Of a stretch of 64,000 bases of DNA, positions 5,845-63,944 are shown in pieces. Below the pieces are notes generated by a model. The model made no database searches and was not told where the DNA came from. It saw only the letters and a list, made by a program, of their open reading frames with translations. Position 1 is the stretch's first letter; each line of letters opens with the position of its first letter. This DNA is from Chloropicon primus (Eukaryota; Chlorophyta; Chloropicophyceae; Chloropicales; Chloropicaceae), in contig CP060769.1 in NCBI GenBank assembly GCA_023205875.1, positions 434,001 to 498,000 of the forward strand, in the 5' to 3' direction. Made by a program: the position numbers and the translations under genes.

Positions 5845-5872
5845 AGGTATCCTCGGAAAGATCGTGAGACGT
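5845..5872 (-). promoter_or_regulatory. Recurrent leader motif, copy for the TRIC-like gene
   Basis: On the minus strand it reads CGTCTCACGATCTTTCC and then GATACCTT. This is among the best matches to the consensus shared by other leaders in the window and has the same sense as the gene. Confidence 0.6.
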
Positions 5873-6306
5873 ACTTTCGTGATAATCGATCCAAAACACG
5901 CCACAACGCCGTCCTCGACCCCCACAACCCCCCACGAACGCGATCACTCCCCTCCCCTTCCCCTGAGAAACGAAAACCAACCCAACGCACAAACGCACGA
6001 AAACCGTGTACCCCATTGCGTACACTCCGATCGCAACCTCATTTTTTTTCCTTTTTTTTTTTGATTTTTTTCCCTTGATCGATCGTGTGCGATCGCAAGA
6101 CGTGATCTGTACTCTTCGATCGAAACTCTTCGATTGTTTTTCGATCGTGGCGCGCGCCTCGCGAGCACAAGACGTGTTTCGCACTCGGCCGCGCGATCGA
6201 TCGAATCGCTGCGATCGAAAGAGAAAGAGAGAGAGAGAAGAGGAACCAGGCGGCACAACGCGATCGATCACAAACAAAACGAAACGCGAAGAAGCGCGGA
6301 GCGGAG

Positions 6307-6706
6307 GTGAGTCACCAGGGCACCACACACGACAGGGGCCAGCGCAAGAGAGAGGGAGGGCCTTGGTTTGCGCCGTCGCCGGTCGCGCAAGGTGTTGGGT
6401 GGTCTCTCTCTCTCTCTCTCTCTGTCTCTCTGTCTCTCTTGTGTGTGTGTTCTTCTTGAGGCCGCGGGCATGGCAAACGAGGGACAGAGGTTCCGCTCTC
6501 CTCTCCTCTCTCTGTCTCTGTCTCTGTCTCTGTCTCTGTTTCTCTCTTGCGGTTTCCTGGCCGCTTTCATCTTCTTCTTCTTCTTTTTGGACGGAGAGCG
6601 GACGGGACATGCCCACGAAGCGGCGAGCGAGACCAAGACACTGACCCTCTCTCTCTCTCTCTCACTCATGCTCTTGTTCCGTTTTCCGGTTTTCGTTTTT
6701 TTGCAG
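6307..6706 (+). other. Probable 5'-leader intron of the GYF gene
   Basis: A strong donor (GGAG|GTGAGT at 6307) and a strong acceptor (long T-tract then TTGCAG ending 6706) bracket 400 nt upstream of the start codon. Confidence 0.6.
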
Positions 6707-6920
6707 GAGATTGTTTGATTGAGAAACAAGCCACAGAGATCTGCCAGCATCAAAGAACAAGAACAAGAAGAACAAGAAGAACATCATCATCCAAAGAGGG
6801 TCAAAGCGTTTTTTGTTTTTGTTCTAGTTTTTTTTTTGTTGTTGTTGTGGAGTGAGAAGTTTTGTGTTCCTTAGGCGGAGAGTTCCCCACCACTCGACAT
6901 ACACACACACACACACACAT

Positions 6921-8957
6921 ATGGGCCGCCATGCAAATAGCGCAACTGAGTCGTCCGATGGAAAGAACGCAAAGGTGCAGCAGTTGACTCAGGCGGGCTC
7001 CAACAAGGAAGCGCCGGTCGGCGGGAAGCAGAAGGAGAGGAAGGAGCACCACCAAGTGGCGGTGCCTGAGAAGCAGCAGGTCAGTGCCAATGGCAACGTC
7101 AATGGCAAGGCGAACAGCAAGGGCGCCGGGAAGCATCAGGAGGACAAGGGCGGCGCCAAGGCCGTCGTTGCGGTGAACGGGGGGTCCGGAGACGCTCCCC
7201 ACCACCACCACCACCACCAGCAGCAGCAGAACGTGAACGGTCACGCCGCCGGGAGCAAGAAGGGCCAGAGGAGCAACAACAAGGGGTCCGGGGACTCGCT
7301 AGCCGAGAAGGAGAACAACAAGCAGACGCACTCCAATGGCGCCCCGGTGCAGAAGGACGCTCCGCAGGCGAACGGGCAGCACCAGCCGGCTTCCTCTGCG
7401 CGTGAGAATGGGGGTTCTGGGGGGCAACAGAGAGAGAGGGGTAACTTCAGGGGTGGCAGGGGTGGCTCGAGGAGGGGCTTCAACCACCAGAGGAGGTCGG
7501 GAGGGGGCCATAAGAGTTCTTCGTCGGGGGAGGCATCCGAGAAGCAGGGGAAAGGCAGCAGTCGCGGCTCTTCGCCAAAGCAGCAGTCCTCTCCGGAGGC
7601 CAGCAAGGATCACAGGAGCACCAACTCCTCCTCCTCCTCGACCTCGGACGCGGAGGAGCTTTCTCAGAAGCATCACCACGGAACGCCCGGAAAGTCGGCA
7701 AAGCTCACGGCGAACGGCGGAAAGCACGCCGCTGCCGCAGCCGCAAACACAAGCGCCGAAGACTCTGACAATCAGAAGCTCGAGGTGAAGGTCGACAACG
7801 GGGGGAACAGGAACGTGACCCTCGTCCAAGACCGGGGCTCCAACCAGTCTGGAAGGGGATCGAAGAAGGAGAGAAGCAGCAGGCAGCAGAAGGAGAAGGA
7901 GAACTCTTCTCACTCTTCTCAGTCGAGGGACGCCAAGCAGCAGCACCAGCAGAACCCTTCGCTGGGCGGCTCGTTCTACCTGAAGGATCCCAAGGGGAGG
8001 AAACTCGGGCCTTTCAGCGCGAGCGACATTGTGGCTTGGTTCGACGAGGGCATCCAGGTGTGCGAGGGCGACAGTGGCGGCTCTTGGGAAAACCTCCGGG
8101 GGGCAACCCTGAGCAAGTTGAGGAAGGGGAAGCAGCAGCAGCAGGGAAGGCAGGACGCGGCCCAATCCCACGCCCCAGCCGGCCAGGAGAAGCCGTCGTC
8201 TGGAAAGCAGCAGCAGCAGCAGCAGCAGGCCGACCAGCAGGCAGTTGTGCCGCTGCCGCAGAGGCAACCGAAGGAGCATCAGAGGAGGGGGACCCCCACA
8301 GGTGGCAAGAAGGAGCACGACTCGGGCTCGGAAAAGCATTCTTCGAAGCAGGCGGAGAAGGAGAAGGACCGATCTGCTTCCCAGCAAGGCGGCCAAGGGG
8401 CGCAGCAGCAGCAAAAGCAGCAGCAGCAGCAGCAGCAGCAGCATGTGGTGACCACCACGAGGGCACCAAAGCATGAGCAGCCCCCAAAGCAGCAGCAGCC
8501 TCTGCAGGAGGCCAGGGGAAAGGACACCTCCTCTGCCTACAAGAAGAACGTCAAGTACACCGACGTTGTTGTGCAGGATCTGTTTACCGGTGGGGTCAAG
8601 AGCAACCCGACGGAGGAGCCCGTGTGGAGGTACATTGACAACGAGCAGCAAATCCAAGGGCCTTGGACATCCAAACAGATGGTCTCTTGGTACAAGCAGG
8701 GCTATTTCGAGCTCAACTTGTTGGTCGTTGGCTGCGAGAGGAAGTTGTGTCCCCCCAACCTTCCAGGAAGGGACCGGTACACTCCTCTCGGCAAGCTCCT
8801 TCAGGACAATGCGACCAAGTTCCCCGGCAGCGCTGTCCAAGCTCTTCCTCAACAGGGTGGCTCGCCGCACCATCACAACAACAGGCACGGCGGCCACCAC
8901 GGCCACCACCAGCACGGCAACAACAACAGACGGGGAAATTACAGAAGGAGCAACTAG
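6921..8957 (+). CDS. Two-GYF-domain, glutamine-rich protein
   Basis: A single-exon 678-residue protein from an ATG just after a CA tract. Most of it is low complexity: Gln runs, His runs, Ser/Lys/Gly-rich stretches and an RGG-box-like block (about residues 175-195) typical of RNA-binding proteins. Two GYF-like modules are visible. The first (about 350-400) has F-Y-L-K-D followed by G-P-F-S and W-F-D-E-G. The second (about 567-630) has W-R-Y-I-D followed by G-P-W-T and W-Y-K-Q-G-Y-F. GYF domains bind proline-rich peptides and in GIGYF-type proteins link translational repression to mRNA decay. A cytoplasmic mRNA-regulatory role is inferred. Two divergent GYF modules near the C-terminus, rather than one, is unusual. 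Confidence 0.85.
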   Translation: MGRHANSATESSDGKNAKVQQLTQAGSNKEAPVGGKQKERKEHHQVAVPEKQQVSANGNVNGKANSKGAGKHQEDKGGAKAVVAVNGGSGDAPHHHHHHQQQQNVNGHAAGSKKGQRSNNKGSGDSLAEKENNKQTHSNGAPVQKDAPQANGQHQPASSARENGGSGGQQRERGNFRGGRGGSRRGFNHQRRSGGGHKSSSSGEASEKQGKGSSRGSSPKQQSSPEASKDHRSTNSSSSSTSDAEELSQKHHHGTPGKSAKLTANGGKHAAAAAANTSAEDSDNQKLEVKVDNGGNRNVTLVQDRGSNQSGRGSKKERSSRQQKEKENSSHSSQSRDAKQQHQQNPSLGGSFYLKDPKGRKLGPFSASDIVAWFDEGIQVCEGDSGGSWENLRGATLSKLRKGKQQQQGRQDAAQSHAPAGQEKPSSGKQQQQQQQADQQAVVPLPQRQPKEHQRRGTPTGGKKEHDSGSEKHSSKQAEKEKDRSASQQGGQGAQQQQKQQQQQQQQHVVTTTRAPKHEQPPKQQQPLQEARGKDTSSAYKKNVKYTDVVVQDLFTGGVKSNPTEEPVWRYIDNEQQIQGPWTSKQMVSWYKQGYFELNLLVVGCERKLCPPNLPGRDRYTPLGKLLQDNATKFPGSAVQALPQQGGSPHHHNNRHGGHHGHHQHGNNNRRGNYRRSN

Positions 8958-9099
8958 TCTATATTTTAATTAAACGTTTTGAAGCAAAACATGTATTAGG
9001 ACTTTGCCTGTCTTTTTCTTTGGATACAAGATAATACAAAAAGGAGACGGAGGGAGGGCCACACACACGCGCGCGCGTGCTCTCCCTCTCTGGTAGTCT
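8958..9099. other. Convergent spacer
   Basis: A short AT-rich 3' region shared by the GYF and HVA22 genes, with a CA/CG dinucleotide tract at about 9060-9080. Confidence 0.5.
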
Positions 9100-9800
9100 C
9101 TACCTCGGCGGAGGATTGAAGAAGGAAGTGAGCGCGTCCGCCACGGCCCGAGTTGTCGCGCTGGCCAAGTGCACGAACTTTCCGATGTCGCCTTCCGCTG
9201 CCCTTGCTTGGGCCCCAACTTCTTTCTCAGCATATGTCAGAGCAGCATCGACGGTGTTCTCGTGCTTCAGCAGGAGCGGCCTCATGTATTCCCTGTACAA
9301 CTTCTCCGCGCCCCTCTTCGACTGCATCCAGACCAACAAGCCCAGCTTGCAGTGGTAATACCACGGAAACATCTGAGACGGACAGAGAGTGGCGGCAGTG
9401 TTGGTGTGTGAGAAACGCGCCAATGACTCAGACACGCGCGGGGTGTCACGACACACACAAGAGAAGGAGAGACTTTTCGTGGGATGGATAAGACGAGACG
9501 CACCTGGAACAGAGGCTCTGCCCCTGCCTCCGCCATGGAAACGCAACCAAACACGCTCCAATAGGTGAGACAGTCCTGCCTGTCCCCCTCAACGCCACCT
9601 CCGAGCCACTGCTCGAGAGGGTTCGTGCCACTTGAACCCCCTTCCCTCGAACTCGCACGGATACTCCTCCTCTCCAGAGCCTTGAACGTCCGATAGACGG
9701 GGTACGCTGCGCCAACGAGCAAGCAGCATGCCTTGGCAAGTCCTGCCGTGTTCTTCGGACTCAGCAGAGCCGCCAAGCCCGCCTGCTGCACCAGACTCAT
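9100..9800 (-). CDS. HVA22/REEP/Yop1 family ER-shaping protein
   Basis: Two exons (9504-9800 and 9100-9372) joined in phase 0 across a 131-nt intron give 189 residues. The TB2/DP1/HVA22 pattern is clear: a hydrophobic hairpin, A-L-E-R-R-S, then the L-T-Y-W-S-V-F-G core. After the splice come W-Y-Y-H-C-K-L-G-L-L-V-W and R-G-A-E-K-L-Y-R-E-Y. These proteins insert hairpins into the ER membrane and bend it into tubules; plant HVA22 members are stress-induced. The insertion between A-L-E and L-T-Y-W is longer than usual and rich in Ser/Gly. The tail is an amphipathic, Ala-rich helix. Confidence 0.9.
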
Positions 9801-9940
9801 CTCTTCTCGCACACACACACTCACACACTCACTCTCTCGCTCTCTGCTGGCTTTGAGGCCAAAGGAAAGGAACACGAAGAAGAAGGATTATTTAGCCCTA
9901 TCCACCTCAAACGTCGTCCTTTCGCCTCGCGCGTGTAACG

Positions 9941-9963
9941 TTTCGAAAGATCGTGAGATAACG
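9941..9963 (-). promoter_or_regulatory. Recurrent leader motif, HVA22 copy 1
   Basis: The minus-strand core is TCTCACGATCTTTCGAAA, flanked by GTTAC on the far side. Confidence 0.6.
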
Positions 9964-10113
9964 CTTCCGTTTGTGGCGCTCTCCCTCGCTTCTGTCGTCT
10001 TTCTCGCTCCCCGCACCGTCCCAAAGCCTTACCTGTCACCACCACCAGCAAGAGAAAAGCATACGTTTCAGTCTCTCTCATCCTCATCACGGCGCCAAAT
10101 GTTTCAAGCAAAA

Positions 10114-10135
10114 GGTCTTTCGAAAGCCCGGAGCA
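10114..10135 (-). promoter_or_regulatory. Recurrent leader motif, HVA22 copy 2
   Basis: The minus-strand core is GGGCTTTCGAAAGACC. It lies about 171 bp from copy 1, one in each predicted leader module. Confidence 0.55.
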
Positions 10136-10317
10136 CGAATATTCCTCTCGTGACCCTTTCTTCCGCCCCCTCCGTCGTTACCTTCCTCCTCATCGTCGCC
10201 ACTCACCTCGTTCCTCGTGTGGTTCCCCGCCTCTCCGCCTTTTCACATGGGGAGCTTTCCCCTCCATTTCTATTGTTGACCAGAAGCTGTCCACCTTGGG
10301 GGTGAGATTGAGTCAAG

Positions 10318-10695
10318 GTGAGTGACTTTGGAGGGATCTTGGAGAGGAAGGGCGAGGATTGTGGCACCAGGGAAAGCAATCATCGGGTAATGCAGCTCGA
10401 GGTCTTTCCAAAGATAGTTTACTTGCTCAATTTGGCTCCGGTTTTGGTGGAAAGATTCCTCGTGAAAGGGTTGACTCTCCTGGGGGGGAAGAGGGGGAAG
10501 GAGAGGCCCTAGTTTGGGCAAGGGTGACGGCGTGTTGGGTCGTGTGAGGAAGGAAGGGAAGGCACGGAGGGAACTGTTGTGTTGCTTCCTTGCCGTGGAC
10601 GCCCGCTCGTACTCGGTGACGTGTTGTGGAGGAAGCGGAGGAACTGAACTTTCTGGTTTTGTCTGTGTCTTTGTGTGTGTTTTGGGTGCTGCCAG
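10318..10695 (+). other. Probable leader intron of the DPY-30-motif gene
   Basis: Donor GTCAAG|GTGAGT at 10318; strong acceptor (T/G-rich tract then GCCAG) ending 10695. The length of 378 nt is about twice the ~180-nt module. Confidence 0.5.
10401..10420 (+). promoter_or_regulatory. Recurrent leader motif, DPY-30 gene copy
   Basis: The core GAGGTCTTTCCAAAGATA is inside the predicted leader intron and in sense orientation. Confidence 0.55.
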
Positions 10696-10771
10696 GGGTG
10701 AAGCGAGGAGGTGACTGAGATCAGTCCAGAGGGTCCAGAGGGCGAGGGTATTGGAACAAACACCAGCAAAG

Positions 10772-11528
10772 ATGACGGAGACCACCAAGTTGGAGCAGGA
10801 GATGCGGGGCTACGCCCAGAGGTAAGCCACGAGGTCGTCGAGGAGTATGAGTTGTGTGTCCACCAGGGTAGTATCCTATCTTCCGGCTCGTTTCGTGTTC
10901 CTTACGATTGCATTGCATTGGCTTTCCCACACACAGCTACAAGGTGCAGGCTCTGATGCAGCAGATGCTGACGGACATCTTCATCAACAAGCCTGACGAG
11001 CCTATTGAATACATGATACAGTGGCTGAGAGGCCACACCGAGGACGGTGCGGAGGGTGGTGTTACGGAGCCCACGACGACTGTGGACGCCCCGGCCCCAG
11101 CGGAAGAGGTCCAGGCCCCAGAGCCAGAGGCCGTTGTGGAGGTTGAGGAGCCTGCCGCCGCTGAGCCGGCTGCTGAGCCGGAACCAGAGCCAGAACCAGA
11201 ACCGGCCGAGGAACCGGAAGCAGCTGCAGAGGAAGCACCTGCGGCTGAGCCTGAAGTGGCAACGGGAGAGGCAGAAGCGGAGGAGACCCCTGCGGAGGAG
11301 AAGCCTGCAGAGGAAGCTGCCCCCGAGGCTCCATCAGAAGAGCCCAAGGAGGCCGAGGCGGCCGAGGAGGAGGAAGCGAAGCCAACGGAAGAGACCGCGG
11401 AGGAGGCCGCGCCGGAGCCTGAAGCCCCTGAGCCCGAAGCCCCTGCAGAGGAGACGGCCGAGCCCGAGGCAGCCCCAGAGGCCGCACCAGAGCCACAGGC
11501 CGAAGCCGAGGCGCCACCCGCGGAGTGA
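10772..11528 (+). CDS. DPY-30/RIIa-motif protein with an acidic Ala/Glu/Pro tail
   Basis: Exon 1 is 10772-10821 and exon 2 is 10937-11528 (115-nt intron splitting a Ser codon), giving 213 residues. The N-terminal ~50 residues form a DPY-30/RIIa-like dimerisation helix pair: Y-K-V-Q-A-L-M-Q-Q-M-L followed by K-P-D-E-P-I-E-Y-M and W-L. This is the docking fold of PKA regulatory subunits, adenylate kinases and many ciliary radial-spoke and central-pair proteins. The remaining ~160 residues are almost entirely Ala, Glu and Pro in imperfect P-E-x-E/A-P-E repeats. There is almost no positive charge in the tail, so it should be extended and disordered. A ciliary or scaffold role is inferred from the motif and from CFAP45 in the same window; no partner is identified. 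Confidence 0.8.
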
Positions 11529-11999
11529 TAACGATAACGCACATCGATGAAGAGAGAAAAGCAAGAGGTATAGGTATAGGGAGAAGAAAGGAAAGTCAGT
11601 CTTGCTGTTTGGGAGATGAAGGGACAAAAGAAGAACGAAGCGCGCGTGTTGGTCATGAAATTAATCCCCTCCACGTTTGAAATCCATCATTGTTTCACTT
11701 GTATACCACGGCGACGACGACGAGGACAACGATCGAACGAGGACGAGGGAGGACTCATCACCATACGAAATAAAACTGAGCAAGTGAGGGCTCTTTGGAA
11801 AGATCAAGAGACAATGCATCCATCTGTCCATCCTCCTGTTTCCCTTCCTTCCCTCTCCCACCATCACCACCAACAACACCAACACCCAGCACCAACGCCA
11901 TCAGCAGCAGCACCAGCAGCACCAACGCCATCAGCAGCAGCTGCAAAGGAGAAGAGAGCGAGGCGTCCAGTCGCTTGGTTGACGTGAGTGGGATCGCGA
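11529..11999. other. Spacer upstream of TFB4
   Basis: No gene is seen. It holds the 3' region of the DPY-30 gene, one leader-motif copy (11789-11813) and CAC/CAG-rich triplet tracts (11860-11945). Confidence 0.6.
11789..11813 (+). promoter_or_regulatory. Recurrent leader motif, TFB4 copy
   Basis: The core GGGCTCTTTGGAAAGATC lies about 190 bp before the TFB4 start codon. The palindromic centre makes orientation ambiguous. Confidence 0.5.
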
Positions 12000-13087
12000 A
12001 TGGCGATGGAGGAGGAGACCGCGTTGGTCATCGTCGTGGACGCGAGCCTCTTCGCTTGGCATTGCGTCCAAGGGAAAGGGAAAGAAGATGAGTTCACACT
12101 TGGGGATCTCGTCGAACACCTTCACGTGTTCCTCAATGCTTTGGTGCTCGTGAGGTCCACGACGAAGGTCGGCATCGTCGTCATGAACGAGAGGAAGGCA
12201 AGCCTCCTGCCGTTACGTTCGCTCGGGCGGCGTTGCCTCTGCGTTACGAGCGGCGGCGTCAACAACAAAGACGAGGACGAGATGACGACGAGGGGAAGAG
12301 GCAAAGTGTTGGAGGACCTGAAAACGAAGTTGTTGGGTTTGATCGAGAGGGAATACTTTGGGGATGGGCAAGAAGCACGAGGGGGAGGGCTAGAGGAAGG
12401 CAAGGGGTGTGCATTGTCTTCCGCGTACTCGAAATGTCTCTGCCTCCTGAGAAGGCATCTGGAATCCTGCGAGGAGGAACACGGTTTGGGTTATGGTTCT
12501 GGACCTGGGGAGGTGGACCTCGAAGGGTTAGAGAGGCAAAGGAGGACGAGGGTGTTGTTCTTGCACGGCTCTCAGGACGTGGCCAGCCAATACATTCAAG
12601 TGATGAATGCTTCTTTCTGTGCACAGAGGCTGGGGACGGTGGTGGACACCTTTATGCTGGGGAGGAGGGACTCGAGTTTTCTACAGCAGGCGGCGAGTAT
12701 AACGGGGGGGCTCTACACAAATTTCTTTGCCGATGCGGCCTCCAAGGACATCAAGAAGTTCTCCTTGTCCACGTACCTGATCCAAGTCTTTCTGGCGGAT
12801 TCCGGGACGAGGGCGGACCTCCAGCTTCCTCAAGGTGAGTGACGGCGGTCCACATGGATCCCGGGCGGTGCGGTGTCTGACGCGTCTCTCCTCTCTCCCC
12901 CGCAGGGCACTCGAACGCCAGCCTCAAGGTGACTTGCTTCCTCACCAAGAAGGCCCTGGACATCGGCTTCGTGTGCTCGGTGTGCCTATCCATCTTCAAC
13001 CAGAAGCTCCAGACGTGTGCCGTCTGCGGGACAGAATTCTCCGACAACAGGGCCTTGAAGAAGAAAGTGCTGTCGAGGCAGGGGTGA
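12000..13087 (+). CDS. TFB4: TFIIH subunit TFB4/p34 (GTF2H3)
   Basis: Two exons (12000-12834, 12906-13087; 71-nt intron) encode 338 residues. The N-terminal vWA-like domain begins with V-I-V-V-D-A-S and W, followed by the L-V-L-V-R-S-T-T-K segment. Late in the protein F-F-A-D-A and S-L-S-T-Y-L-I-Q-V-F-L-A-D match the family. After the intron, T-C-F-L-T-K-K-A-L-D-I-G-F-V-C-S-V-C-L-S-I-F and the C4 zinc finger (CxxC, then CAVCG) are diagnostic. TFB4 belongs to the TFIIH core that works in RNA polymerase II initiation and nucleotide-excision repair, where it pairs with p44/SSL1. Length agrees with yeast and human orthologues. Confidence 0.96.
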
Positions 13088-13218
13088 TGGGCTGCTTGCT
13101 TCCTTGCTTTGGACTGTAAAGTAAATTGTACAATATTACATTATCTTTTGTTTCTTGTTGTTATATGATGATGTACAGCTCCTTTCTCGTTGCCGGGCCC
13201 ACCGGACTCCATCAGTCT

Positions 13219-14515: not shown

Positions 14516-14688
14516 CTGCACGACAACGAGCACAAGGGGAGCACGTTTCAGTCTCTGACATGACCGAATGAACGTCATTCTTCTCAACCAAGAGGTCATT
14601 GGAAAGCTCACGAGACGATCTTTCGAAAGGTGTGACCTTCATGTCGAGAATATCCCAAATTACGTCGACAACTCGGCCACAAACTCAC
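14516..14688 (-). other. Probable 173-nt leader intron of BRX1
   Basis: On the minus strand the donor GAACGAG|GTGAGT (G at 14688) and the acceptor GTCGTGCAG (ending 14516) enclose 173 nt, four bases upstream of the ATG. A motif copy lies in its middle. Confidence 0.6.
14599..14630 (-). promoter_or_regulatory. Recurrent leader motif, BRX1 double copy
   Basis: On the minus strand a TTTCGAAAGATCGTCTCGTG block runs directly into GAGCTTTCCAATGACC, so two half-overlapping copies share the CGTCTC box. Confidence 0.6.
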
Positions 14689-15090
14689 CTCGTTCCAATC
14701 AATCCCCCTTCGCCCCCTTTTTCGAGAATGAATGCGCCGCCTCCAGGGGGTCGAAAAAAGAATGCACCGTACACTCATGAAAACACATTCGCCACGAGAC
14801 ACTTCAGATATGTTCTGTACTAGACATTACTCACACAGAATATTTTCTCTTTTGACTCTTTTGTTCGGTTTCGTTCCAGGAAGGGTAACGAAATCTTGAA
14901 GAGAGGATCTTGCGGTTCAAGAACAGAAGCTGCGGTCGTGGAGGGTTCGCATTAACGTGCGATTTGTACACCGCTCACGTGTTTGGCAAGAGCGGAGAGC
15001 GGACGGGAACGAAGCGAAAGAGAGGTAAGTTCGCGCACCTCTGCACGACGGAGGACCCAAGGAAAACGAGTGAGGGTGGCATCAAACGAA

Positions 15091-15113
15091 GCGTCTCGTC
15101 GAGACCTTTCGAA
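15091..15113 (+). promoter_or_regulatory. Recurrent leader motif, MYB copy 1
   Basis: The core GCGTCTCGTCGAGACCTTTC is followed by GAACGAG, in the first leader module. Confidence 0.55.
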
Positions 15114-15282
15114 CGAGCTCGGTCTCGAAGCGAATGGCGCCAGGATGAGGATTTGCCGAGGGACTGACGTCGATGCACGTATGCTTGGTCTGTTCTTTGG
15201 ATGGAGCAGGTGAGTTCGAGGCCGGGACGGAGGGAGCGTAACGCCTGGAAGCCGCGCGCGGACGTTACGAAGGCCTTGATCG

Positions 15283-22264: not shown

Positions 22265-22585
22265 TATCAATAACCAAACAAACCTATTGTATATCTATAT
22301 CTATATCTATGCCTCAATCCATCCACCCATCAAAGGAATGGAATGGAATGGAATTATCAAAGGATTCCATCACGAGAGGAGGAAGACGAGGCAGGCGGTA
22401 AGTGGGACGCCGAAGGACGTGAAGCTTTTCCGATCCTCCACCGACTCCGAGAAGAGTAGAAAAGAAAACAAAAAACTCCAAGCCGAGGATGCCTTGTCCT
22501 TTCCTTCCTTCCAATGATGATGTTGTTGTTGATGATGAACAAGGTCAGTAACCAATGCAATGCGGAAGCAAATCCTTCGAGGAAG

Positions 22586-22612
22586 GTGTCTACGGAAAGA
22601 TCATGAAATGAA
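22586..22612 (-). promoter_or_regulatory. Recurrent leader motif, rhodanese-gene copy
   Basis: The minus-strand core is ATTTCATGATCTTTCCGTAG, then ACACCTTCC. Confidence 0.55.
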
Positions 22613-23062
22613 TCATCCGAAGATGTGGCTTCCACGAGTGCGGGACGATCGACGCGTCCGCCACGCTCGCCCAAAAAGAAGTCACCTCACCTCCTTCGCC
22701 TTCCCTCCCAAAGCAGCTCTGGCCCTCCGGAGAAGGGCGAAACTCAGAGTAACGTCCCTGAACGAAACATCAACCTTCCCGTAACTAAATTATAGTTCAT
22801 CATTCTTTACACCACATTACCTTTAATACGTATTATGCACATAAAAAATATGTCATGGAGAGAATGCATGTATTTAAGATTTGAAGTTTGGGTAATATTT
22901 CTTGCTGTATTTCAATGTACGACGTTTGGTTCGGAAGAGGGCCAATCACCGTCGTTGTTCCATCTCTCCCCTCAAGATGGATTTTCTACACGAATCTCTT
23001 CACATTATCCAAAAATAGTTTTTGGGCGGGCGATCAGCGAGATCCACAACCACGAAGACAAG

Positions 23063-23244
23063 GTAAGGTTTGCGCCGCTACGGTGGACGAACGCGATCGA
23101 GAGGGAAGGAGGACGGCGCGCAGGGGGAACCATCATGTCGTGATCTTTCCAAAGAACCCGCTCTTGAAAGAAATGACGCCATGGGGACGATGGAAGGGCC
23201 CGGAACACGTCTTGCCTTCTCCTTGGGTGGGTATGCATCGTGCA
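23063..23244 (+). other. Probable 182-nt leader intron of thioredoxin m
   Basis: Donor ACAAG|GTAAGG at 23063, acceptor CATCGTGCAG ending 23244. One motif copy is inside. Confidence 0.5.
23133..23160 (+). promoter_or_regulatory. Recurrent leader motif, thioredoxin copy 1
   Basis: The core TGTCGTGATCTTTCCAAAGA is followed by ACCCGC. Confidence 0.6.
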
Positions 23245-23439
23245 GGCAACTTGGTCGCGAGATACACGACGGAGGGGGAGGGTCGCAGCGAGGCGGGCGT
23301 TACAACTGGATCACTCGCGCATTAATCTCTCGTTGGACCCCTCGGTCGAACCGAACGACGCCGTTTTGAGGATTCCAGAGACTGAAACGTTTGGTGTTTT
23401 TCTTGTTGTGTTCTCTGGCGGATACCCACTGGTCTCAAG

Positions 23440-23582
23440 GTGAGTCGAATGGCGGGAAGGGGGAGGAGGGCGAGGAAGAGGGCGGGATGAGGAGAAGCAC
23501 CGCGTCCTTCTCTTTCGAAAGAGCCCTCGAACTCTGAGTGAGACGCTCTGTCTCGGATGTCGTGACTCTTGGCTGACTCTTG

Positions 23583-55915: not shown

Positions 55916-55980
55916 CCACCCATCCATCCATCCATCCATCCACCCATCCATCCATCCACCCATCCATCCATCCATTCCAT
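55916..55980. repeat. CCAT tetranucleotide tract
   Basis: An imperfect run of CCAT/CCAC units with two CCAC interruptions. Confidence 0.95.
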
Positions 55981-56108
55981 CACTTCTTCTCTTGCTCAGA
56001 GCAAGTTGCCTCTCCCCTCCGACGACATCCACTCCTCTGCTGCTGCTCCATCGTCACAATCAATCAGGATCGCGTCGAGTGGAGGGGCAGAGCACGACAA
56101 CGACGACG

Positions 56109-57574: not shown

Positions 57575-57593
57575 GCTGTATAATTACACAATT

Positions 57594-59801
57594 TTAAGCG
57601 AGTTCCAGGTGAACCTTGAGGATTTTCGTCTTCTTCAGGAACTTGCACTTTAGGGGCACATTTGTTTTCAAGTTGACATCCAGTTCAAGAAAATACTTTC
57701 CTTCCACGTCGCATATCACCTTGTTCTTGCTCAGCTGCAGATCAATCTCCTTCTGGTATTCAACAGATGGCAGTTTCACTTCGAGTTTTAGCCGCTTGCC
57801 TCCTTTAGAGCGCTCCGCTGTTTCCATGGTGTACTCGGGCTCAGGCACTGCGGGGGCGCTCGAGGTGGTCTGCTCCTCCTCCTGCTCCTCCTCCTTCTCC
57901 TCCTTCTTCTCCTCCTCCTTCGTCTCCTCCTTCGTCTCCTCCTTCGTCTCCTCCTTCGTCTCCTCCTCTGTATTGCTCAATCCTACTTCAAGGTGCGTCC
58001 CCGCACTACCCTCGCTAGTCGATGGACCTTCATCTTCTTCTTGCACCGCGTTTTCAGTCTGTTCCTTCCTTGCTTGAGCCCCCCCCTCGTCGACCTCAGC
58101 AGTTGCGGCAGAGGCATCACTGCCGGCTGCATCTGATTCCTTGGCCACCACCGTCCCTTTCGTGGTGTGGTCCTTGACGCTGTCCCTCTTGTACAAAAGC
58201 ATGTAGACGTTCTGAGAGAGCACAGTCCTCGTGCTCACTGGGGTGATGGAGCTGTCGTCGCACTTGTACCACTGGTCCCCTCGTTTCACGAAAGAAATAT
58301 AGTGCCCAGCCGATGAGAAGGGCGAGATGTGAACGATGACTGCATACAGAGAGTACTCCAAGTCTTCCGTATCCACCGCATCCTCTGCCATGTACGGCTC
58401 AAGATCAAGGCTTTCAGGGAAGGAGACTTGCGTGTTGATCTTCCCGAACCCATAGTACGAAAATCGCTTCAACGCGATCATGAGAACGTTTGGGCAAACC
58501 TCAAGCACGCTCCTCACCCTCGCGTCTCGTTTTTGCTTGCACGTGTCGCACTTGTACTGGTTCTCGCCACACAGCTCCTCCTCCTCTGTAAAGGCTTCCA
58601 GGGCCCCCTCCAGGGTCCTGATGCCGCGTGAGATCTGGAGCTCCAGCGTCAGGAATCCCTGGAAGGTCTTGGACACAAACCCGCAGTCGCACTCCACTTC
58701 CCCTCTGGTGTACCCCCCGAAAATTTGCCAGATCAAGGACGTCTCCTCGCTCCTCTCGTCGAGCTTCTTCTTTCCCTCGCTCGCAGCTGCCTCTTTGGCC
58801 ATGAGCGTCTGGATGGAATCGAGCCACTCCACCATGAAATCGTGGGCATCTTCCTGATCACCAAAGGTAAAGTGGCTTCCGATCTCCTCGATGTTTAGCA
58901 AGAATGAACGCGGCGAAAACACTTTCTTGTCACACCCGTAGTAGGACTGAACCAAGTCCTCCGTCTCGCAAAGTGGGCACCAGTCCCCCGCTTTGCTGCA
59001 CTCGCCAGAGTCGTTGTGGCTGAGACCCTGCAAGAAAAAGTTGGCAAAGGGCTCAATGTGCAAGAGGCACTGCGTGACTGAATTCGCGAAGCACGAATTC
59101 CCAACGTTCCTCAGGCCCACTGGAGAGGAAAGGCAGGCAAAGGAGTCCTCCCCAATCTCCTCGATGACCACGTCGTCGTTCTCGGTGTCGCTCGTGCTCC
59201 CCTCAACACCCTCGTAAAGGTCCTTGAACTTGGCAAATGGGAACAGAACTTTCTTTGGCTTTGCCAAGATATTGTCATCCCCCGCCGAGCTCGTTGACGC
59301 GTCCCCGTTGGCCACCGCGGAGGCGGATGAGCTCCTCCTCCTCAGCGGAGACGATCTCGCAGGGGAAGAACCGGCCGAGCTCACCCTGCAGATGTTCTTG
59401 TGGCCACCCTGCCAGTCAGCTCTCTGGCACTCTGTCGTGCAGTACCTCACAGCCTTGCAACGCGCGCACCTCCTCGTCGCCTTGGCGTTGCAATCGGGCC
59501 TGCTACACACATACTCGATCCGCCCGCTGCTCTCCAAGCCTGTGGAAGTCGAGCTCACGTTCCCACCCGGCTGGCTTCTAATGAGCTCGCCCTTGGCTCT
59601 CATCCCCATGGCTCTCCTCTTCGTAGTCCTCCGAACCCTTCTGTTCGTCCCAACTCTCCGCGTCCCCGTCCTCTTGGTTCCGAAGGTCCTGTTCAACAGC
59701 ACTAAAGCCACAACAAGAGACGACACGAGGCAGGACAAAAGCAATACAGGCAAAATAAAGCTCTCGCGACCTTTTGCCTTGTCCACAAGTATACTTATCA
59801 T
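57594..59801 (-). CDS. MYND-USP deubiquitinase (UBP15-19-like) with a C-terminal PIH1 CS-like domain
   Basis: A single-exon 735-residue protein. The N-terminus has a membrane helix (about 15-36), then a MYND zinc finger (C-x4-C, C-x2-C, C-x3-C, H-x3-C, about 95-135). The USP domain starts at G-L-R-N-V-G-N-S-C-F-A-N-S with the catalytic Cys, has zinc-finger cysteines (C-D-C-G, C-D-T-C), and ends in the His box S-A-G-H-Y-I-S-F with W-Y-K-C-D-D. This arrangement matches plant UBP15-19. An acidic linker with four E-E-T-K repeats follows. The last ~70 residues (L-K-L-E-V-K-L-P-S-V, G-K-Y-F-L-E-L, C-K-F-L-K-K-T-K-I-L-K-V) resemble the CS-like domain of PIH1 proteins that work with Hsp90/R2TP. Catalytic residues look intact. 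Its stop is 19 bp from the ILR1-like stop. Confidence 0.88.
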   Translation of the reverse strand: MISILVDKAKGRESFILPVLLLSCLVSSLVVALVLLNRTFGTKRTGTRRVGTNRRVRRTTKRRAMGMRAKGELIRSQPGGNVSSTSTGLESSGRIEYVCSRPDCNAKATRRCARCKAVRYCTTECQRADWQGGHKNICRVSSAGSSPARSSPLRRRSSSASAVANGDASTSSAGDDNILAKPKKVLFPFAKFKDLYEGVEGSTSDTENDDVVIEEIGEDSFACLSSPVGLRNVGNSCFANSVTQCLLHIEPFANFFLQGLSHNDSGECSKAGDWCPLCETEDLVQSYYGCDKKVFSPRSFLLNIEEIGSHFTFGDQEDAHDFMVEWLDSIQTLMAKEAAASEGKKKLDERSEETSLIWQIFGGYTRGEVECDCGFVSKTFQGFLTLELQISRGIRTLEGALEAFTEEEELCGENQYKCDTCKQKRDARVRSVLEVCPNVLMIALKRFSYYGFGKINTQVSFPESLDLEPYMAEDAVDTEDLEYSLYAVIVHISPFSSAGHYISFVKRGDQWYKCDDSSITPVSTRTVLSQNVYMLLYKRDSVKDHTTKGTVVAKESDAAGSDASAATAEVDEGGAQARKEQTENAVQEEDEGPSTSEGSAGTHLEVGLSNTEEETKEETKEETKEETKEEEKKEEKEEEQEEEQTTSSAPAVPEPEYTMETAERSKGGKRLKLEVKLPSVEYQKEIDLQLSKNKVICDVEGKYFLELDVNLKTNVPLKCKFLKKTKILKVHLELA

Positions 59802-60033
59802 ACCATATGTGGTGAATATTGTATGGAACAAAAATATCTCTCTCTGTCTCTCTGTCTTTCTGACAAAAGCACTGGATCACGATCCAGCCAAGCCTCCCTT
59901 CTGCCTCGTCCTCGCCGCTCTCCTCTTCCTCCCTCCTCTCTCTCTCTCTCTGTCTGTCTGTCTCCTTCAAGCAGAAGAGATACGAAACGTTCAGCCTTGT
60001 CAAAATCTCATCCCTCCGTTGTTTCTCTCGACA

Positions 60034-60056
60034 AAAGTATCATTCGAAAGAGGAAG
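60034..60056 (-). promoter_or_regulatory. Recurrent leader motif, USP copy 1
   Basis: The minus-strand core is CTTCCTCTTTCGAATGATAC. Confidence 0.5.
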
Positions 60057-60115
60057 AAACCCTCTCGCCGCAGGTAATGCCAGCACGCCTCGCCTCGCGA
60101 CGACACGCGTCCCAG

Positions 60116-60136
60116 ACTCTTCCGAAAGAGACACCC
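60116..60136 (-). promoter_or_regulatory. Recurrent leader motif, USP copy 2 (weak)
   Basis: The minus-strand core is GGTGTCTCTTTCGGAAGAGT. Confidence 0.4.
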
Positions 60137-60215
60137 TCGATCCACGGTATTGGCACTTCCCTCTTTGACACACTCCCTTTCGTCAAATCCTCATTCCAGC
60201 GTCGTTTCTCACGAG

Positions 60216-60242
60216 AAAACCATCATTCGAAAGAGGACGAGT
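60216..60242 (-). promoter_or_regulatory. Recurrent leader motif, USP copy 3
   Basis: The minus-strand core is CGTCCTCTTTCGAATGATGG. It lies 182 bp from copy 1, within a duplicated block. Confidence 0.5.
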
Positions 60243-61134
60243 CAAACTGTTCCCCTATAACGCTTTCGTTCCACACCCCTCGTCCGTACGTTCCACACCC
60301 TGCGCCGAAACAGCGCCACTCACCTCTGCCCCCCCGGAGGCGACGCTCTGGACTGATACTTTGGCCGACACCTCATAAAGCGTGTACTATCGCGTACATC
60401 GAATCGTGGATGAGATAACGTCACATACCGAAAATATCATCCCCAGGACAAGGAGGGCAAAAAGGTGGCGTCTTGGACATTAGGTGAGGCCACGAGTCAC
60501 ACACAGACACACAGACAACAGACAGGCAGACAGACACAGGTTGGAGGAGCCTTGGAGCTTTGTTGACACACCTTTAGGTCAGGATCTTGCCGTGCGTTAC
60601 GATTCTCTTTTGCGTAACGCGCTCGTGCTTGTGCTGAAGGACGGTTGTTGTTTGTTGGTCGTAGTAGTGGCGGTTGGGTTGAGGGAGTGGGAGGAGGGGA
60701 GTGTTGGTGTGCTGGTGTGGTGCGTGCCACGCGTTACTTTTTTAGGTGGGATAGTAACGGGTGGAGAAAGATTGTGACTTGGAGGGGTGAGGACAACGCG
60801 GGCGAAGGCTACGAGGTCGAGGAGGCACAAAGCAAGGGAGGCCAAGGGGTAGTGGGAGAGAGAGAGGTCGTAGTGGGCAATGGGCTCCTCCTTTGTCTTC
60901 ACGTCCGACTGACGAGGAGCAAGGGACACGGAATTGAAGAAAGGGCCTGGCAGGGAACGGGAGAGGGAAGAGAGAGAGGAGAGACTCTTTGAGGTTTGTG
61001 TTTGGTGGACGAGGCCCTTGCTGGTGGAGGACGCCACCCAGAGAGAGAGGGAGAGAGAGAGAAAGAGAGAGAGAGAAAGCGAGGGAGGTTGAGAGACCGC
61101 GAAGAGAGCAGGAACTTCAATCCCTGGAGAGACG

Positions 61135-61915
61135 ATGAACGTGACAGGGCAGATAGGAAAATTCGCGGCGAAGAGGCAAAGGGATGCCATTGCCCAAAGG
61201 ATGAAGGAAGGAATGAACTTCGGGAACTCGTCAAAGGTACTTGTTGGTCAAGCTCTTTCTTTCCCTTCCCTCTGCAGCGTCGCCACCGCCATGCGTGCTT
61301 TCCTCGTCTTGTACTGACTCTTCGAGTTTGGTGTCCTCTCTTCAGGTTGACTGGGAAGACTACAACTATCCACCGTTGTTGCAGATTATACATTTTAGCT
61401 TAGATGATATCGAGGACGCTCAAGCCAAGTCTGCGGTGCGTTGGGCGCACATGAGCTACAGATTCGTTTGCTTCACCCTGCTCTTCAACATCGCGGCGAC
61501 TTTGGTGTTGGTGAGCTCTGGAGCAAAGGGGAGTTTCCTCAACGTCCTGTACTCTATCTTCAACTTCATCATCGTCTCGCTCGTTGGTCTGTATTCGTTC
61601 TACAACGCGTACAAGGGGTTGGCCACAAACAACATGTCGATGAGTTTGAAGTACATCATGATTCAGTGCTTGACGATTGTGTTCATGGTCGTCTCCGTTT
61701 CGGCTTACGGGGCCAACTTCAACGGACTCGGGTCGCTCAAGAAGGCAAACAACGCGTCGTCGAAGATAAAGCAAATGTGGGTGGCTTGGGTTATCGTAGA
61801 GAGCATCATGTGGATCATCAACCTGTGCACGGGCATCTACAGTGCACTTAAGGTTCAGCAAAATAGGAGGGAAGGAAGGCCTACTGCCTTTCCCCTGACG
61901 GAGAATCCTACGTAG
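61135..61915 (+). CDS. Tetraspan membrane protein, SCAMP-like
   Basis: Exon 1 (61135-61236) and exon 2 (61346-61915), joined in phase 0 across 109 nt, give 223 residues. A short amphipathic N-terminus is followed by N-Y-P-P-L-L-Q-I-I-H-F, then four hydrophobic helices separated by short loops, and a polar tail with Q-Q-N-R-R-E. The Y-P-P-L-L-Q-I-I-H lead-in before the first helix and the four-helix core recall secretory carrier membrane proteins, which act in post-Golgi and endocytic traffic. The usual NPF repeats are missing. The family call is moderate; another four-helix vesicle protein is possible. Confidence 0.65.
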
Positions 61916-62019
61916 ACTGCGCCGGAGGGGCTTTGGCGTGTGGGCAGGGGTAGTGTTGCCGAGAAGCGAAGGGCCTTCTTGCACGGAGTAATTATGATAT
62001 CACACACTCCGCTTGTCTA
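61916..62019. other. Convergent spacer
   Basis: A short 3' region shared by two genes. Nothing else is seen. Confidence 0.5.
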
Positions 62020-63382
62020 TTATTTAGTCTTTAGCTTACGTCTTAATCTAAGTTTCCAGATGCAAAGGAACAGTGCCGTGGCAACTCCAACGGTGATCCA
62101 AGACCACTTGACGAGCTGCGGCCACGGCTGGCTGAACAAGTCCTTCCCGAATTTGTAAATGATCAGGAATTCCAGGATGGTGCAGGACAGGAATATCCAT
62201 GTGAAGACGCCAAGCTTGTTCACTTGCTCCTTTCCAGTCTTCGTAATGAAGTAGTAGTACTCGTTCACCGCAGGGATCACCATGAAGAAAAACACGAAGA
62301 GCCTGTAGGTGTTCAGCATGTTTCTTGGTGGTATCCAAAGAACGTATTTCATGAAGAAAGCGTTGACCTCGCAGGCCAAGCACGCTGCCGCCAGGACCAG
62401 GCACTGAACGAAGCGCTTCGGGTTGCTCATCATGTTCCACTCGTATCGCTCCACCTTCTCTGGGGTGAACTGCAGGAAAAGGCGCTTCGCTTTCAGCAAA
62501 AACGTCGGCTGGTCGCTCACACCAACCCACTCGTTGCCATACGCTTCTCTCTTTTGGATCCAAAACAATCCAATCAGCATCCCCAAATTGTTGCAGAGGA
62601 CGACGTCCAGGATCCAGCTGTCCCACCAGCACTCGTTGAAGTTGGGAAGCATGTGGGCAAAGGTAAGCTCCATGAGTTCGAAACCTATCGACAGAAACAA
62701 GAGTATTTTCCAATCCCTGAACACCATCGCCTTGGCGACCCAGCCAAAGAGGTGAGCCAGGACGAACTCATCCAGTAGAGTGTCCATGATGTTCGCAATT
62801 TTGCTTCTCGGGTTCTCTGGAGTGAACACGCGGCAGTCGTTTCCATAAGCGCGTTCGTCCAGGGCGACTCCGAGCTCGTCGTACAGATACTTGAAGGACT
62901 GTCGCGCCTGTGTGAAAAGCGGGGGTGAAAACGCAGTGATCGAAAAGTGTCAGGCTTCAAGGCACACGGCTCAGCGAGCTGGGAAGCTGTCCTACCTGGT
63001 TGGCGTCCATGAACAGGATAAGAACAAGGAAGAGCATGTAGAGCAAGGTCACTCCGTGCACTATCTTCCACACTATGGGGTGCGGTCTTATCATGAAGGT
63101 GTGGGGCGCATAAAGGGCAGAGTACGCCAAAAAAGTGGCAATGATCGCCGCAACTCCTTGCTTCACCCTGGCTTCGGTGGAGAACTCCGTCTGATACAGT
63201 CCAAACGCGTCCGAGAAATAAGCAAGCAGGCAGAGCCCACAAGCCATGACCGTGACCGTTCTCGGCCTATAAAATATTTTGGCGAGAGGGTCGACATCCT
63301 CAATCAGAGGGTGGGCACCAGTTCCCAATCCCGTTCCCGTTCCCCTCCCTTCCCCTCCCTTCCCCGACCGAGTTCGCACCAT
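62020..63382 (-). CDS. Phosphatidylserine synthase, base-exchange type (PSS1-like)
   Basis: Exon 1 (62996-63382) and exon 2 (62020-62907), joined in phase 0 across 88 nt, give 424 residues. About eight to nine membrane helices are present. Family blocks are R-P-H-P-I-V-W-K-I-V-H-G, F-V-L-A-H-L-F-G-W-V-A-K-A, L-S-I-G-F-E-L-M-E-L-T-F, L-P-N-F-N-E-C-W-W-D-S-W-I-L-D-V-V-L-C-N-N-L-G-M and F-F-M-K-Y-V-L-W-I-P-P-R-N. The E-C-W-W-D and C-N-N-x-G motifs are diagnostic. The enzyme swaps serine for the head group of PE or PC in the ER in a Ca2+-dependent reaction. The C-terminus is basic (R-L-R-R-K-L-K-T-K), which could serve as an ER retrieval signal. Confidence 0.96.
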
Positions 63383-63649
63383 TCCTCTGCCCTATCCAAA
63401 ACCAAATCAATCCCAAAGCAAATAATCAATCGAACGCTCGGAAGTGATGCCAAGTCAAGCGAAACAATGCGAAGGACGGCAAGACGACTCAGGTAGCTCT
63501 CCGTCGAGCGCAGACCTAACGTCCCGGCCCAGTCGTAATGCTCGCTTCGTTCGTTCTGTTCACCACCAACCTCTTCTTCCCTCGCAGAACTCAAGTCACA
63601 CCGTCGTCCCTCGTTCTCCACGAACCCTGGCGCCAAATCCTTCAAGCGC

Positions 63650-63678
63650 GGTACCAATCCAAAGCTCGCGAGACGAAG
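63650..63678 (-). promoter_or_regulatory. Recurrent leader motif, PSS copy
   Basis: The minus-strand core is CGTCTCGCGAGCTTTGGATT, then GGTACC. Confidence 0.55.
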
Positions 63679-63922
63679 CTTCGTTCTGACTCCCTCTCGA
63701 CGCCTGTTACCTTGGTCCTCGTCGCGCAATTCTTCGCCAAAGCGTTGATTCTCCTCTCCTCCTCGTTGGAGCCCCTCCCTCTCTCGGTTGATCTTGATCT
63801 GTCAAATTCAAGACGCGATCTTGGATTGGGGCGATGGCGGGATGGGCACAACTGATGCGGGTTTGACGACCAGGGGGATGGTCGGAGGGGAACAGTAGCG
63901 ACGTAGAGTGATACTACATCTT

Positions 63923-63944
63923 CAGGGCTTTCGATAGATACCTT
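63923..63944 (+). promoter_or_regulatory. Recurrent leader motif near the right edge
   Basis: The core CAGGGCTTTCGATAGATACC is the same CAGGGCTTTCG variant as the calcium-pump copy. It points right, so a plus-strand gene just outside the window is predicted. Confidence 0.45.

What the first reader, a model, noticed from the sequence alone, without database searches (positions are those of the whole stretch)
5845..63944. A recurrent, gene-oriented leader motif in most long upstream regions
About 24 intergenic sites share a core centred on CTTTCGAAAG. Written in the sense of the gene it precedes, the 5' box is CGTCTC-N2-GATCTTTC and the 3' box is either AAAGACC/AGCCC or N4-GATACC. Examples are 5845, 9941, 14599, 15283, 22586, 23133, 33722, 33903, 40429, 40697, 45820, 50421 and 63650. 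In divergent regions the copies split by strand so that each points at its own gene. No copy was noticed inside a coding exon or coding intron. Short upstream regions (before the GT47, ERO1 and PreP genes) lack it. I know of no described motif of this form. Candidates are an intron-mediated enhancer, a core promoter element or a leader-intron family signature.
Basis: partly seen in the sequence, partly recalled or inferred. Interest (0 to 1): 0.85.

Follow-up and report, generated by a model that had tools for sequence, protein, structure and literature searches.

The report
180-bp-phased leader motif in alga
A roughly 75-letter DNA signal sits near the start of many genes of what is probably a tiny marine green alga, pointing along the gene and often repeated every ~180 letters, about the spacing of DNA-packaging spools, which suggests a gene-start control element of a form not seen in the papers searched.

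Summary
The window holds 25 matches to a ~75-bp oriented element (49 bits); all 13 listed sites are among them. Genome-wide, CTTTCNNNNGANNNNTCNNTYG occurs 1201 times against 5 for its reversed control. Two features are new. (1) Spacing: same-strand neighbours lie ~180 bp apart (genome-wide 90 GATCTTTC pairs at 160-190 bp, 3 at 129-159, 5 at 191-221), and facing copies in divergent promoters ~245 bp apart. (2) Position: the element appears transcribed. 34 of 115 copies sit ~57-85 bp after a strong 5' splice site; a second class (46 copies) hardly ever does and is depleted of ATG. Both classes share the spacing, so "leader-intron signature" fails as the basic explanation. RNA pairing is unsupported. 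Most likely it is a protein-bound DNA element acting from downstream of the transcription start, in register with the first nucleosomes, functionally like plant intron-mediated-enhancement/GATC motifs but with another sequence. Transcription starts, nucleosomes and the binding protein were not measured. The genome fits Chloropicon primus (inferred). One window copy (11810) belongs to a separate dispersed repeat.

The parts
1926..2001 (-). leader element, class B, upstream of the gene at 618-1554
   Evidence: PWM 39.3 bits; class
5632..5707 (-). weak second copy, 181 bp downstream of 5868
   Evidence: 18.7 bits; spacing
5813..5888 (-). leader element, class B, upstream of the minus-strand gene below 5400
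   Evidence: 48.7 bits
9902..9977 (-). leader element, class A, second copy, 177 bp downstream of 10134; 5' splice site at -75
   Evidence: 43.0 bits; donor score 11.1
10079..10154 (-). leader element, class A, first copy; 5' splice site at -72; faces 10396 across 262 bp
   Evidence: 59.0 bits
10376..10451 (+). leader element upstream of the plus-strand gene with coding exon 10935-11525; the one class B copy with a donor scoring over 8.5 (-78)
   Evidence: 41.4 bits
11755..11830 (-). member of a separate dispersed repeat family that carries the core; not oriented to a gene
   Evidence: 59.2 bits; 61 further genomic matches
14559..14634 (-). leader element, class A, upstream of the Brix-domain gene
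   Evidence: 57.3 bits; Pfam
14516..14688 (-). inferred 173-nt leader intron around the 14614 element: GTGAGT at -74 to CAG at +98, start codon 5 nt after the acceptor (14511)
   Evidence: sequence read; donor score 10.4; not confirmed by cDNA
15078..15153 (+). leader element, class A, first copy, upstream of a Myb-domain gene (weak REVEILLE match); donor at -73
   Evidence: 58.3 bits
15264..15339 (+). leader element, class A, second copy, 186 bp after the first; its donor (15210) directly follows a CAG (...GCAG/GTGAGT...)
   Evidence: 55.9 bits; sequence
22552..22627 (-). leader element, class B, upstream of the rhodanese-domain gene; a donor of borderline score (8.4) at -83
   Evidence: 48.3 bits
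23117..23192 (+). leader element, class A, first of three; donor at -74
   Evidence: 66.3 bits
23299..23374 (+). second of three, 182 bp on
   Evidence: 43.4 bits
23484..23559 (+). third of three, 185 bp on; donor at -64; leads into the gene starting near 23.66 kb
   Evidence: 41.5 bits
33686..33761 (-). leader element, class B, second copy; DNL zinc-finger gene
   Evidence: 57.1 bits
33867..33942 (-). leader element, class B, first copy, 181 bp from the second
   Evidence: 56.9 bits
40396..40471 (-). leader element, class B, AAA/FtsH-like gene; faces 40699 across 248 bp
   Evidence: 40.2 bits
40679..40754 (+). leader element, class B, gene with PG_binding_1 domain
   Evidence: 41.4 bits
45798..45873 (+). 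leader element, class A, donor at -79
   Evidence: 43.1 bits
50403..50478 (+). leader element, class A, importin-like gene, in a head-to-tail gap
   Evidence: 35.7 bits
55855..55930 (-). weak hit between two plus-strand genes, antisense to both; doubtful
   Evidence: 26.5 bits
60003..60078 (-). leader element, class A, second copy, 183 bp from the first; ubiquitin hydrolase gene
   Evidence: 37.5 bits
60186..60261 (-). leader element, class A, first copy; donor at -82
   Evidence: 46.2 bits
63617..63692 (-). leader element, class B, phosphatidylserine synthase gene; faces 63920 across 248 bp
   Evidence: 55.1 bits
63900..63975 (+). leader element, class B; its gene would lie beyond the window
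   Evidence: 51.2 bits

Best explanation
The motif is a long (~75 bp), oriented, sequence-specific DNA element on the downstream side of promoters, inside the transcribed leader. It is bound at DNA level by a protein or complex, probably one with two-fold symmetry, since the core reads CTTTCGAnnGAG-nn-CTCnnTCGAAAG. It promotes transcription or fixes the start site from roughly 70-150 bp downstream of the start, in register with the +1 nucleosome, and extra copies sit in register with the +2 and +3 nucleosomes ~180 bp further on. In some genes the leader containing it is spliced out, in others it stays in the mRNA; the element does not depend on splicing. Shown by sequence: the motif, its orientation, its absence from 34 coding introns, the 180- and 245-bp spacing, the split by splice site, ATG depletion in the class without splice sites, no pairing covariation. 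Inferred: start-site position, nucleosome register, protein binding, activating effect.
For: Enrichment 1201 vs 5 genome-wide. A conserved block of 49 bits with little column information outside it. One whole unit tested (23060-23240) has only one other match in the genome, 38 bp over the core. Tandem spacing: 35 of 37 neighbours at 172-188 bp; genome-wide 90 vs 3 and 5 in the two adjoining 31-bp bins, the 90 having mean 179.9, sd 4.5. Spacing also holds where flanks have diverged to about the level of unrelated loci, for example window pairs at 177, 182, 185 and 186. Divergent spacing: 20 of 22 at 218-279 bp; genome-wide 19 vs 4 and 3. Transcribed location: a donor scoring 8.5 or more lies at -100 to -50 in 34 of 115 elements, against 4 of 118, 4 of 114 and 2 of 114 in three same-sized windows nearby, 17 of 117 at -260 (where an upstream tandem copy's donor falls) and 69 of 3000 random windows. 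Around each class A donor there are 2 ATG in 825 nt on the exon side against 71 in 4290 nt on the intron side (p=0.0006). In class B, -60 to -20, 3 ATG in 1840 nt against 13 in 1320 nt in donor-bearing class A (p=0.0017); those columns were not used to define the classes.
Against: No transcript, nucleosome or binding data were available. 81 of 115 elements lack a strong 5' splice site nearby. For the 36 class A copies without a donor ATG is not depleted (13 in 1440 nt at -60 to -20), so the transcribed-leader argument is untested there. The donor threshold of 8.5 was set after seeing the scores; at 5 the split is 41 of 69 vs 10 of 46 (p=0.0001). A start near -90 would leave first exons of only some 5-35 nt before the donors, which is tight. 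About a dozen window genes lack an element on their own strand on my reading (for example 6948, 12000, 19309, 29576, 34575, 43175, 54385), and four samples from match-poor domains (three on C1, one on C2) hold none in 40 kb, so it is not a universal promoter part. Five of 118 point away from the nearest gene without explanation. Some tandem copies are recent duplicates (core and flank identity up to 100%), so the 90 genomic pairs are not all independent. The ~10-bp periodicity of conservation is weak (permutation p 0.016-0.039 at 9-10 bp, among 13 periods tried).
Confidence: 0.58

Rival explanations
1. Leader-intron signature or introner-like mobile introns: the conserved block belongs to a ~175-nt intron unit that spread through leaders, and the 180-bp period is intron length.
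For: 34 of 115 elements have a strong donor, all at -57 to -85; branch-like sequence at +50 to +85 in 35 of 69 class A against 8 of 46 class B and 15 of 114 at +200 to +240; in one tandem pair a CAG directly abuts the next donor (15209/15210). Introners are known in algae (PMC9860276, passages read).
Against: Class B has a strong donor in 1 of 46 but the same spacing (11 of 11 B-B pairs at 177-183 bp). No copy in 34 coding introns. The one unit tested has no genomic relative beyond a 38-bp core match.
Confidence: 0.1
2. Upstream transcription-factor or core-promoter site: transcription starts downstream of the element, at least in class B, where many copies lie close to the coding start.
For: Class B median distance to the predicted coding exon is 250.5 bp, with 14 of 46 under 115 bp. 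A dyad-symmetric core is typical of dimeric factors (general knowledge).
Against: ATG is depleted across the class B element region. Donor-bearing class A copies lie after a splice site and share the divergent geometry with class B.
Confidence: 0.17
3. RNA element in the 5' leader (hairpin or protein-bound RNA) acting on translation or splicing.
For: Sense orientation; the dyad would allow a hairpin.
Against: Across 102 non-redundant cores and 31 dyad pairs, pairing is about what shuffled columns give; one pair (7-34) is 2 sd above and none strongly. In donor-bearing class A the element would be removed with the intron. The ~180-bp and facing spacings are hard to explain at RNA level.
Confidence: 0.05
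4. Post-start adenine-methylation (6mA) or linker-DNA signal: the GATC/ApT in the core marks linkers between the first nucleosomes.
For: Micromonas has periodic 6mA downstream of starts, out of phase with nucleosomes (PMC12695648, passages read).
Against: Only 52 of 118 elements keep GATC; a 75-bp motif is far more than a dinucleotide methyltransferase needs; no methylation data for this genome.
Confidence: 0.1

Closest known systems
Plant downstream GATC motif, YVGATCBR (Voichek et al. 2024, PMC11525189; passages read)
   Same: Acts from downstream of the transcription start, in leaders and introns; additive copies; thousands of genes; GATC core.
   Different: 8 bp without fixed spacing; reported effect modest or unclear in bryophytes, and the word alga does not occur in the main text. 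Here 0 of 118 cores match it (6 of 118 anywhere in the element), and the element is ~75 bp, oriented and phased at ~180 bp.
Arabidopsis intron-mediated-enhancement motif TTNGATYTG (Gallegos and Rose 2019, PMC6760150; abstract read)
   Same: Works from an intron or from unspliced 5' leader and coding sequence, splicing-independent; the same two settings as classes A and B.
   Different: Motif absent from all 118 elements; no spacing grid is mentioned in the abstract.
Intron-mediated enhancement in Chlamydomonas (PMC7419008; search listing only)
   Same: Green alga, introns raising nuclear gene expression.
   Different: Title calls it post-transcriptional; I did not read whether a shared motif was found.
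Human ZFX at +240 of CpG-island promoters (PMC5848610; passages read)
   Same: Protein bound downstream of the start at a fixed place relative to phased nucleosomes, at many promoters.
   Different: Short AGGCCTAG motif, itself symmetric around the start; one position just before the first downstream nucleosome; animals.
MuvB at the +1 nucleosome (PMC8792015; abstract read)
   Same: A sequence-specific complex associated with a positioned +1 nucleosome.
   Different: Represses human cell-cycle genes; no long repeated element.
Introners (PMC9860276; passages read)
   Same: Intron-sized units in algal genes; nucleosome-related placement.
   Different: See rival: no intron-wide similarity in the unit tested, not in 34 coding introns, a class almost without splice sites.

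Membership tests
Plant GATC / IME downstream motifs | Consensus YVGATCBR or TTNGATYTG | tested here: not met
   0 of 118 at the core position for YVGATCBR, 6 of 118 anywhere; 0 of 118 for TTNGATYTG
Plant GATC / IME downstream motifs | Lies in transcribed sequence near the start, in intron or leader exon | tested here: inconclusive
   Splice-site position and ATG depletion support it for 33 class A and 46 class B copies, not for 36 class A copies without donor; start sites not mapped
Plant GATC / IME downstream motifs | Raises expression only downstream of the start, dose-dependent | not testable with these tools
   needs reporters
Introners | Similarity across the whole intron between loci | tested here: not met
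   One 181-bp unit tested: only a 38-bp second match; flank identity between unrelated loci 0.60 and 0.56 with gaps, not compared with random sequence
Introners | Found in coding-sequence introns | tested here: not met
   0 of 34 reconstructed coding introns, same strand
Introners | Target-site duplications or terminal inverted repeats | not tested
   -
Structured RNA element | Compensatory changes in paired positions | tested here: not met
   Pairing at 31 dyad pairs close to that of shuffled columns
Core promoter elements (TATA, Inr, DPE class) | Fixed position within about 40 bp of the start | tested here: inconclusive
   Start not mapped; ATG counts in proximal class B copies fall near -90, which would put the element about 70-145 bp downstream (inference)
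Dispersed repeat / transposon | Whole units similar at unlinked loci | tested here: not met
   Not met for the one ordinary unit tested; met for the 11810 subfamily (61 further matches)

The most novel reading that the evidence does not exclude
A genome writes its promoter-proximal nucleosome array into the DNA: one long, oriented, dyad-symmetric recognition element per nucleosome for the first one to three nucleosomes on each side of shared promoters, read by a dedicated chromatin factor, with leader introns cut to the same ~180-bp grid.
Probability: 0.35. Interest if true: 0.9.

Novelty: new variant of a known kind. Interest (0 to 1): 0.74.

Why it matters
Regulation from downstream of the start site is established in flowering plants but its origin is open; the plant GATC effect fades towards bryophytes, and algae are not mentioned in that paper's main text. 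A long, precisely spaced downstream element in a chlorophyte would show that green algae also encode promoter information inside the transcript. It would give a natural test of whether sequence sets the +1/+2/+3 nucleosomes, because copies occur singly, in pairs and in triples at the same spacing. It would also supply a promoter part for a small-genome alga.

Tried and rejected
Tried without result: a scan of viral contigs with CTTTCGAAAGAGCCNTCGCTYGA found nothing. One genome pattern was mistyped with three instead of four Ns; its 7 hits serve only as an off-register control. Two- to four-class mixture models do not beat one class by BIC (24383, 25259, 26327 vs 24071); I keep two classes as a working split because the donor sites, which lie outside the clustered columns, separate 33 of 69 from 1 of 46 at score 8.5 (41 of 69 from 10 of 46 at score 5). 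The ATG-versus-TTG contrast at columns 36-38 (14 of 33 vs 1 of 46) and the branch-like contrast are partly circular, since those columns wholly or partly entered the clustering, so I rest on columns -60 to -20 and on the donors. Reading the pyrimidine-to-purine switch near -115 as the start site was dropped, because in facing pairs the partner's purine-rich leader forces that switch. Column pairs off the dyad do show mutual information above shuffles (for example 52-54, 40-52, -7 with 31), which I read as subclasses or shifts in register and did not pursue. Known-factor guesses from memory were not tested and are not claimed. Rows dropped: 5 of 123 matrix hits removed as reverse-strand echoes of the palindrome; 3 more of 118 dropped from the donor table for lack of flank. 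Literature: ten searches, of which I saw only the listed top rows, showed no description of this element; most subscription papers are not held.
Full report
WHERE IT IS. The window is contig C16:434001-498000 of a 17,584,162-base genome in 20 contigs, GC 56% in the window. This fits Chloropicon primus: 17.4-17.5 Mb, 20 chromosomes, 57.5% GC, mean intron 152-154 bp (PMC6731263 and PMC12301720, passages read). The RCC138 assembly is said to lack telomere repeats only at one end of chromosome 1, and the first 400 bases of contig C1 show none; other contig ends were not looked at. The species is an inference; no call names it.

CHECK. In short form it reads AC....gGAAgc..CGTCTC..GATCTTTC(G/C)AAAGAGCCCTCGCTCGAA.GATTTGGCG...GgTGAGG. 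It holds 49 bits. The window has 25 hits and all 13 listed sites are among them. Genome-wide counts exceed the reversed-pattern control by 80 to 0, 361 to 0 and 1201 to 5. The last pattern catches 60 of 118 elements in my sample and 6 of 25 in the window, and some palindromic sites are counted twice, so a few thousand copies is my estimate for the genome.

SAMPLE. I used the window and 23 loci of 10 kb (294 kb). Eighteen of the 20 loci were picked because they hold a 14-mer match. From 123 hits over 10 bits, 5 were removed as reverse-strand echoes, leaving 118. Two further 10-kb loci (L035, L036) fetched later hold no element.

ORIENTATION AND SURROUNDINGS. A simple coding-state model gave a gene map. 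Of 118 elements, 102 are followed by a same-strand coding exon, 11 by an opposite-strand one, 5 by none in the stretch. Of the 11, two I read as a gene-finder error, four belong to the repeat subfamily described below, and five stay unexplained. Ninety of 123 hits have a same-strand exon downstream and an opposite-strand exon upstream, that is, lie in divergent gaps. Pfam matches of window genes that follow an element include Brix, rhodanese, DNL zinc finger, FtsH-like AAA, importin, ubiquitin hydrolase, phosphatidylserine synthase and a Myb domain. I see no common function. No same-strand copy lies in 34 coding introns.

GEOMETRY. Among 118 elements, 35 of 37 same-strand neighbours are 172-188 bp apart, and 20 of 22 facing neighbours 218-279 bp apart. 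In the window alone, chosen without regard to this, tandem spacings are 181, 177, 186, 182, 185, 181, 183 and facing spacings 262, 484, 530, 248, 248. Genome-wide, GATCTTTC pairs number 90 at 160-190 bp but 3 at 129-159 and 5 at 191-221. The 90 span 168-189, mean 179.9, sd 4.5. Facing pairs number 4, 19 and 3 in three adjoining 31-bp gap bins; all 26 together have a median of 244.5 bp between reference points. Some pairs are recent duplicates, but pairs whose flanks have drifted to about the level of unrelated loci keep the spacing. I infer a chromatin constraint: 180 bp is a usual nucleosome repeat (general knowledge), and dyad-to-dyad distance across the shared promoter would be about 286 bp.

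TWO CLASSES. A two-component mixture on columns -20 to +75 splits 71 class A and 47 class B; BIC prefers one class, so this is a working split. It is borne out by a feature outside those columns: a 5' splice site scoring 8.5 or more at -100 to -50 is present in 33 of 69 class A and 1 of 46 class B (p=2e-8). The threshold was set after seeing the scores; at 5 it is 41 of 69 and 10 of 46. Same-sized windows elsewhere give 4 of 118, 4 of 114, 2 of 114 and 69 of 3000 random; the window at -260 gives 17 of 117, as expected from the upstream tandem copy. Branch-like sequences at +50 to +85 occur in 35 of 69 and 8 of 46, although part of that stretch was clustered on. An example is 14614: GTGAGT at -74, CTGAAAC at +63, CAG at +98, start codon five bases later.

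IS IT TRANSCRIBED. Upstream ATGs should be avoided in leader exons but not in introns. Around each class A donor there are 2 ATG in 825 nt on the exon side and 71 in 4290 nt on the intron side. In class B, -60 to -20 has 3 ATG in 1840 nt against 13 in 1320 nt for donor-bearing class A (p=0.0017). At -100 to -75 the two do not differ (7 in 1150, 2 in 825; p=0.32). In proximal class B copies, ATG counts fall near -90, which I take as the likely start site; with donors at -57 to -85 this leaves very short first exons, so the start may lie somewhat further up. The 36 class A copies without a donor show no ATG depletion and stay unexplained; they may be intronic through donors further off.

DNA OR RNA. 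The core is nearly dyad-symmetric, CTTTCGAnnGAG-nn-CTCnnTCGAAAG, but across 102 non-redundant cores the 31 dyad pairs match about as often as shuffled columns do. I therefore read the dyad as a protein-DNA feature.

REPEAT SUBFAMILY. The exception at 11810 belongs to a dispersed family with 61 further matches (40 of 43 candidates scored), 71-97% identical over 36-146 bp, many on C18-C20 and in an array spaced 149-162 bp at C18:415448-416450. The three L013 exceptions are among these matches. The one ordinary unit tested, 23060-23240, has one other match, 38 bp over the core.

DISTRIBUTION. On C1, 5 of 50 pattern matches lie in the first 937 kb and 45 in the rest; on C2, 44 of 46 lie below 900 kb of 1.77 Mb (my count of the list). 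Four samples of 10 kb from the poor domains, three on C1 and one on C2, hold no element.

MECHANISM AND COMPARISON. The best reading is a downstream promoter element bound by protein and registered with the first nucleosomes. It works like the plant downstream motifs, which act from intron or exon (PMC6760150, abstract; PMC11525189, passages), but fails their sequence test (0 of 118 at the core). Introner and structured-RNA membership fail tested features. Adenine methylation after the start is a live rival because Micromonas has it between nucleosomes there (PMC12695648, passages), though only 52 of 118 copies keep GATC.

Noticed in passing
upstream zone of elements, e.g. L014 between 7960 and 8218, L011 near 7400, L032 near 1440: A second motif, TGTCCNTGGGA, sits in the middle of divergent promoters: 6 of 6 exact matches in 314 kb (window and 25 loci) fall 30-215 bp upstream of an element, a zone that makes up 5.7% of that sample. 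Looser versions are not enriched as clearly (TGTCCNTGG 7 of 32, CTGTCCA 4 of 55).
   Followed up: partly
window 11690-11920 (minus strand); C18:415448-416450: A dispersed repeat family carrying the element core, with an array spaced 149-162 bp, many copies on contigs C18-C20.
   Followed up: partly
C1 0-937 kb, C2 above 900 kb: Large chromosome domains nearly free of the element (5 of 50 and 2 of 46 matches); four 10-kb samples there have none and 57.6-60.4% GC.
   Followed up: partly
window 15209/15210; 23319-23504: Adjacent leader units where a 3' splice site abuts or nearly abuts the next 5' splice site (GCAG/GTGAGT), like zero-length or micro-exons or recursive splicing.
   Followed up: no
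L009 near 8677 (minus strand): A stretch that by eye recalls a TnpB-like nuclease; no family search was run, and no minus-strand open frame of 150 codons or more covers it.
   Followed up: no
L021 7492 and 7670, L018 7826, L025 7596 (all minus): Strong elements pointing towards the 3' end of an opposite-strand gene; possible non-coding divergent transcripts or missed genes.
   Followed up: no
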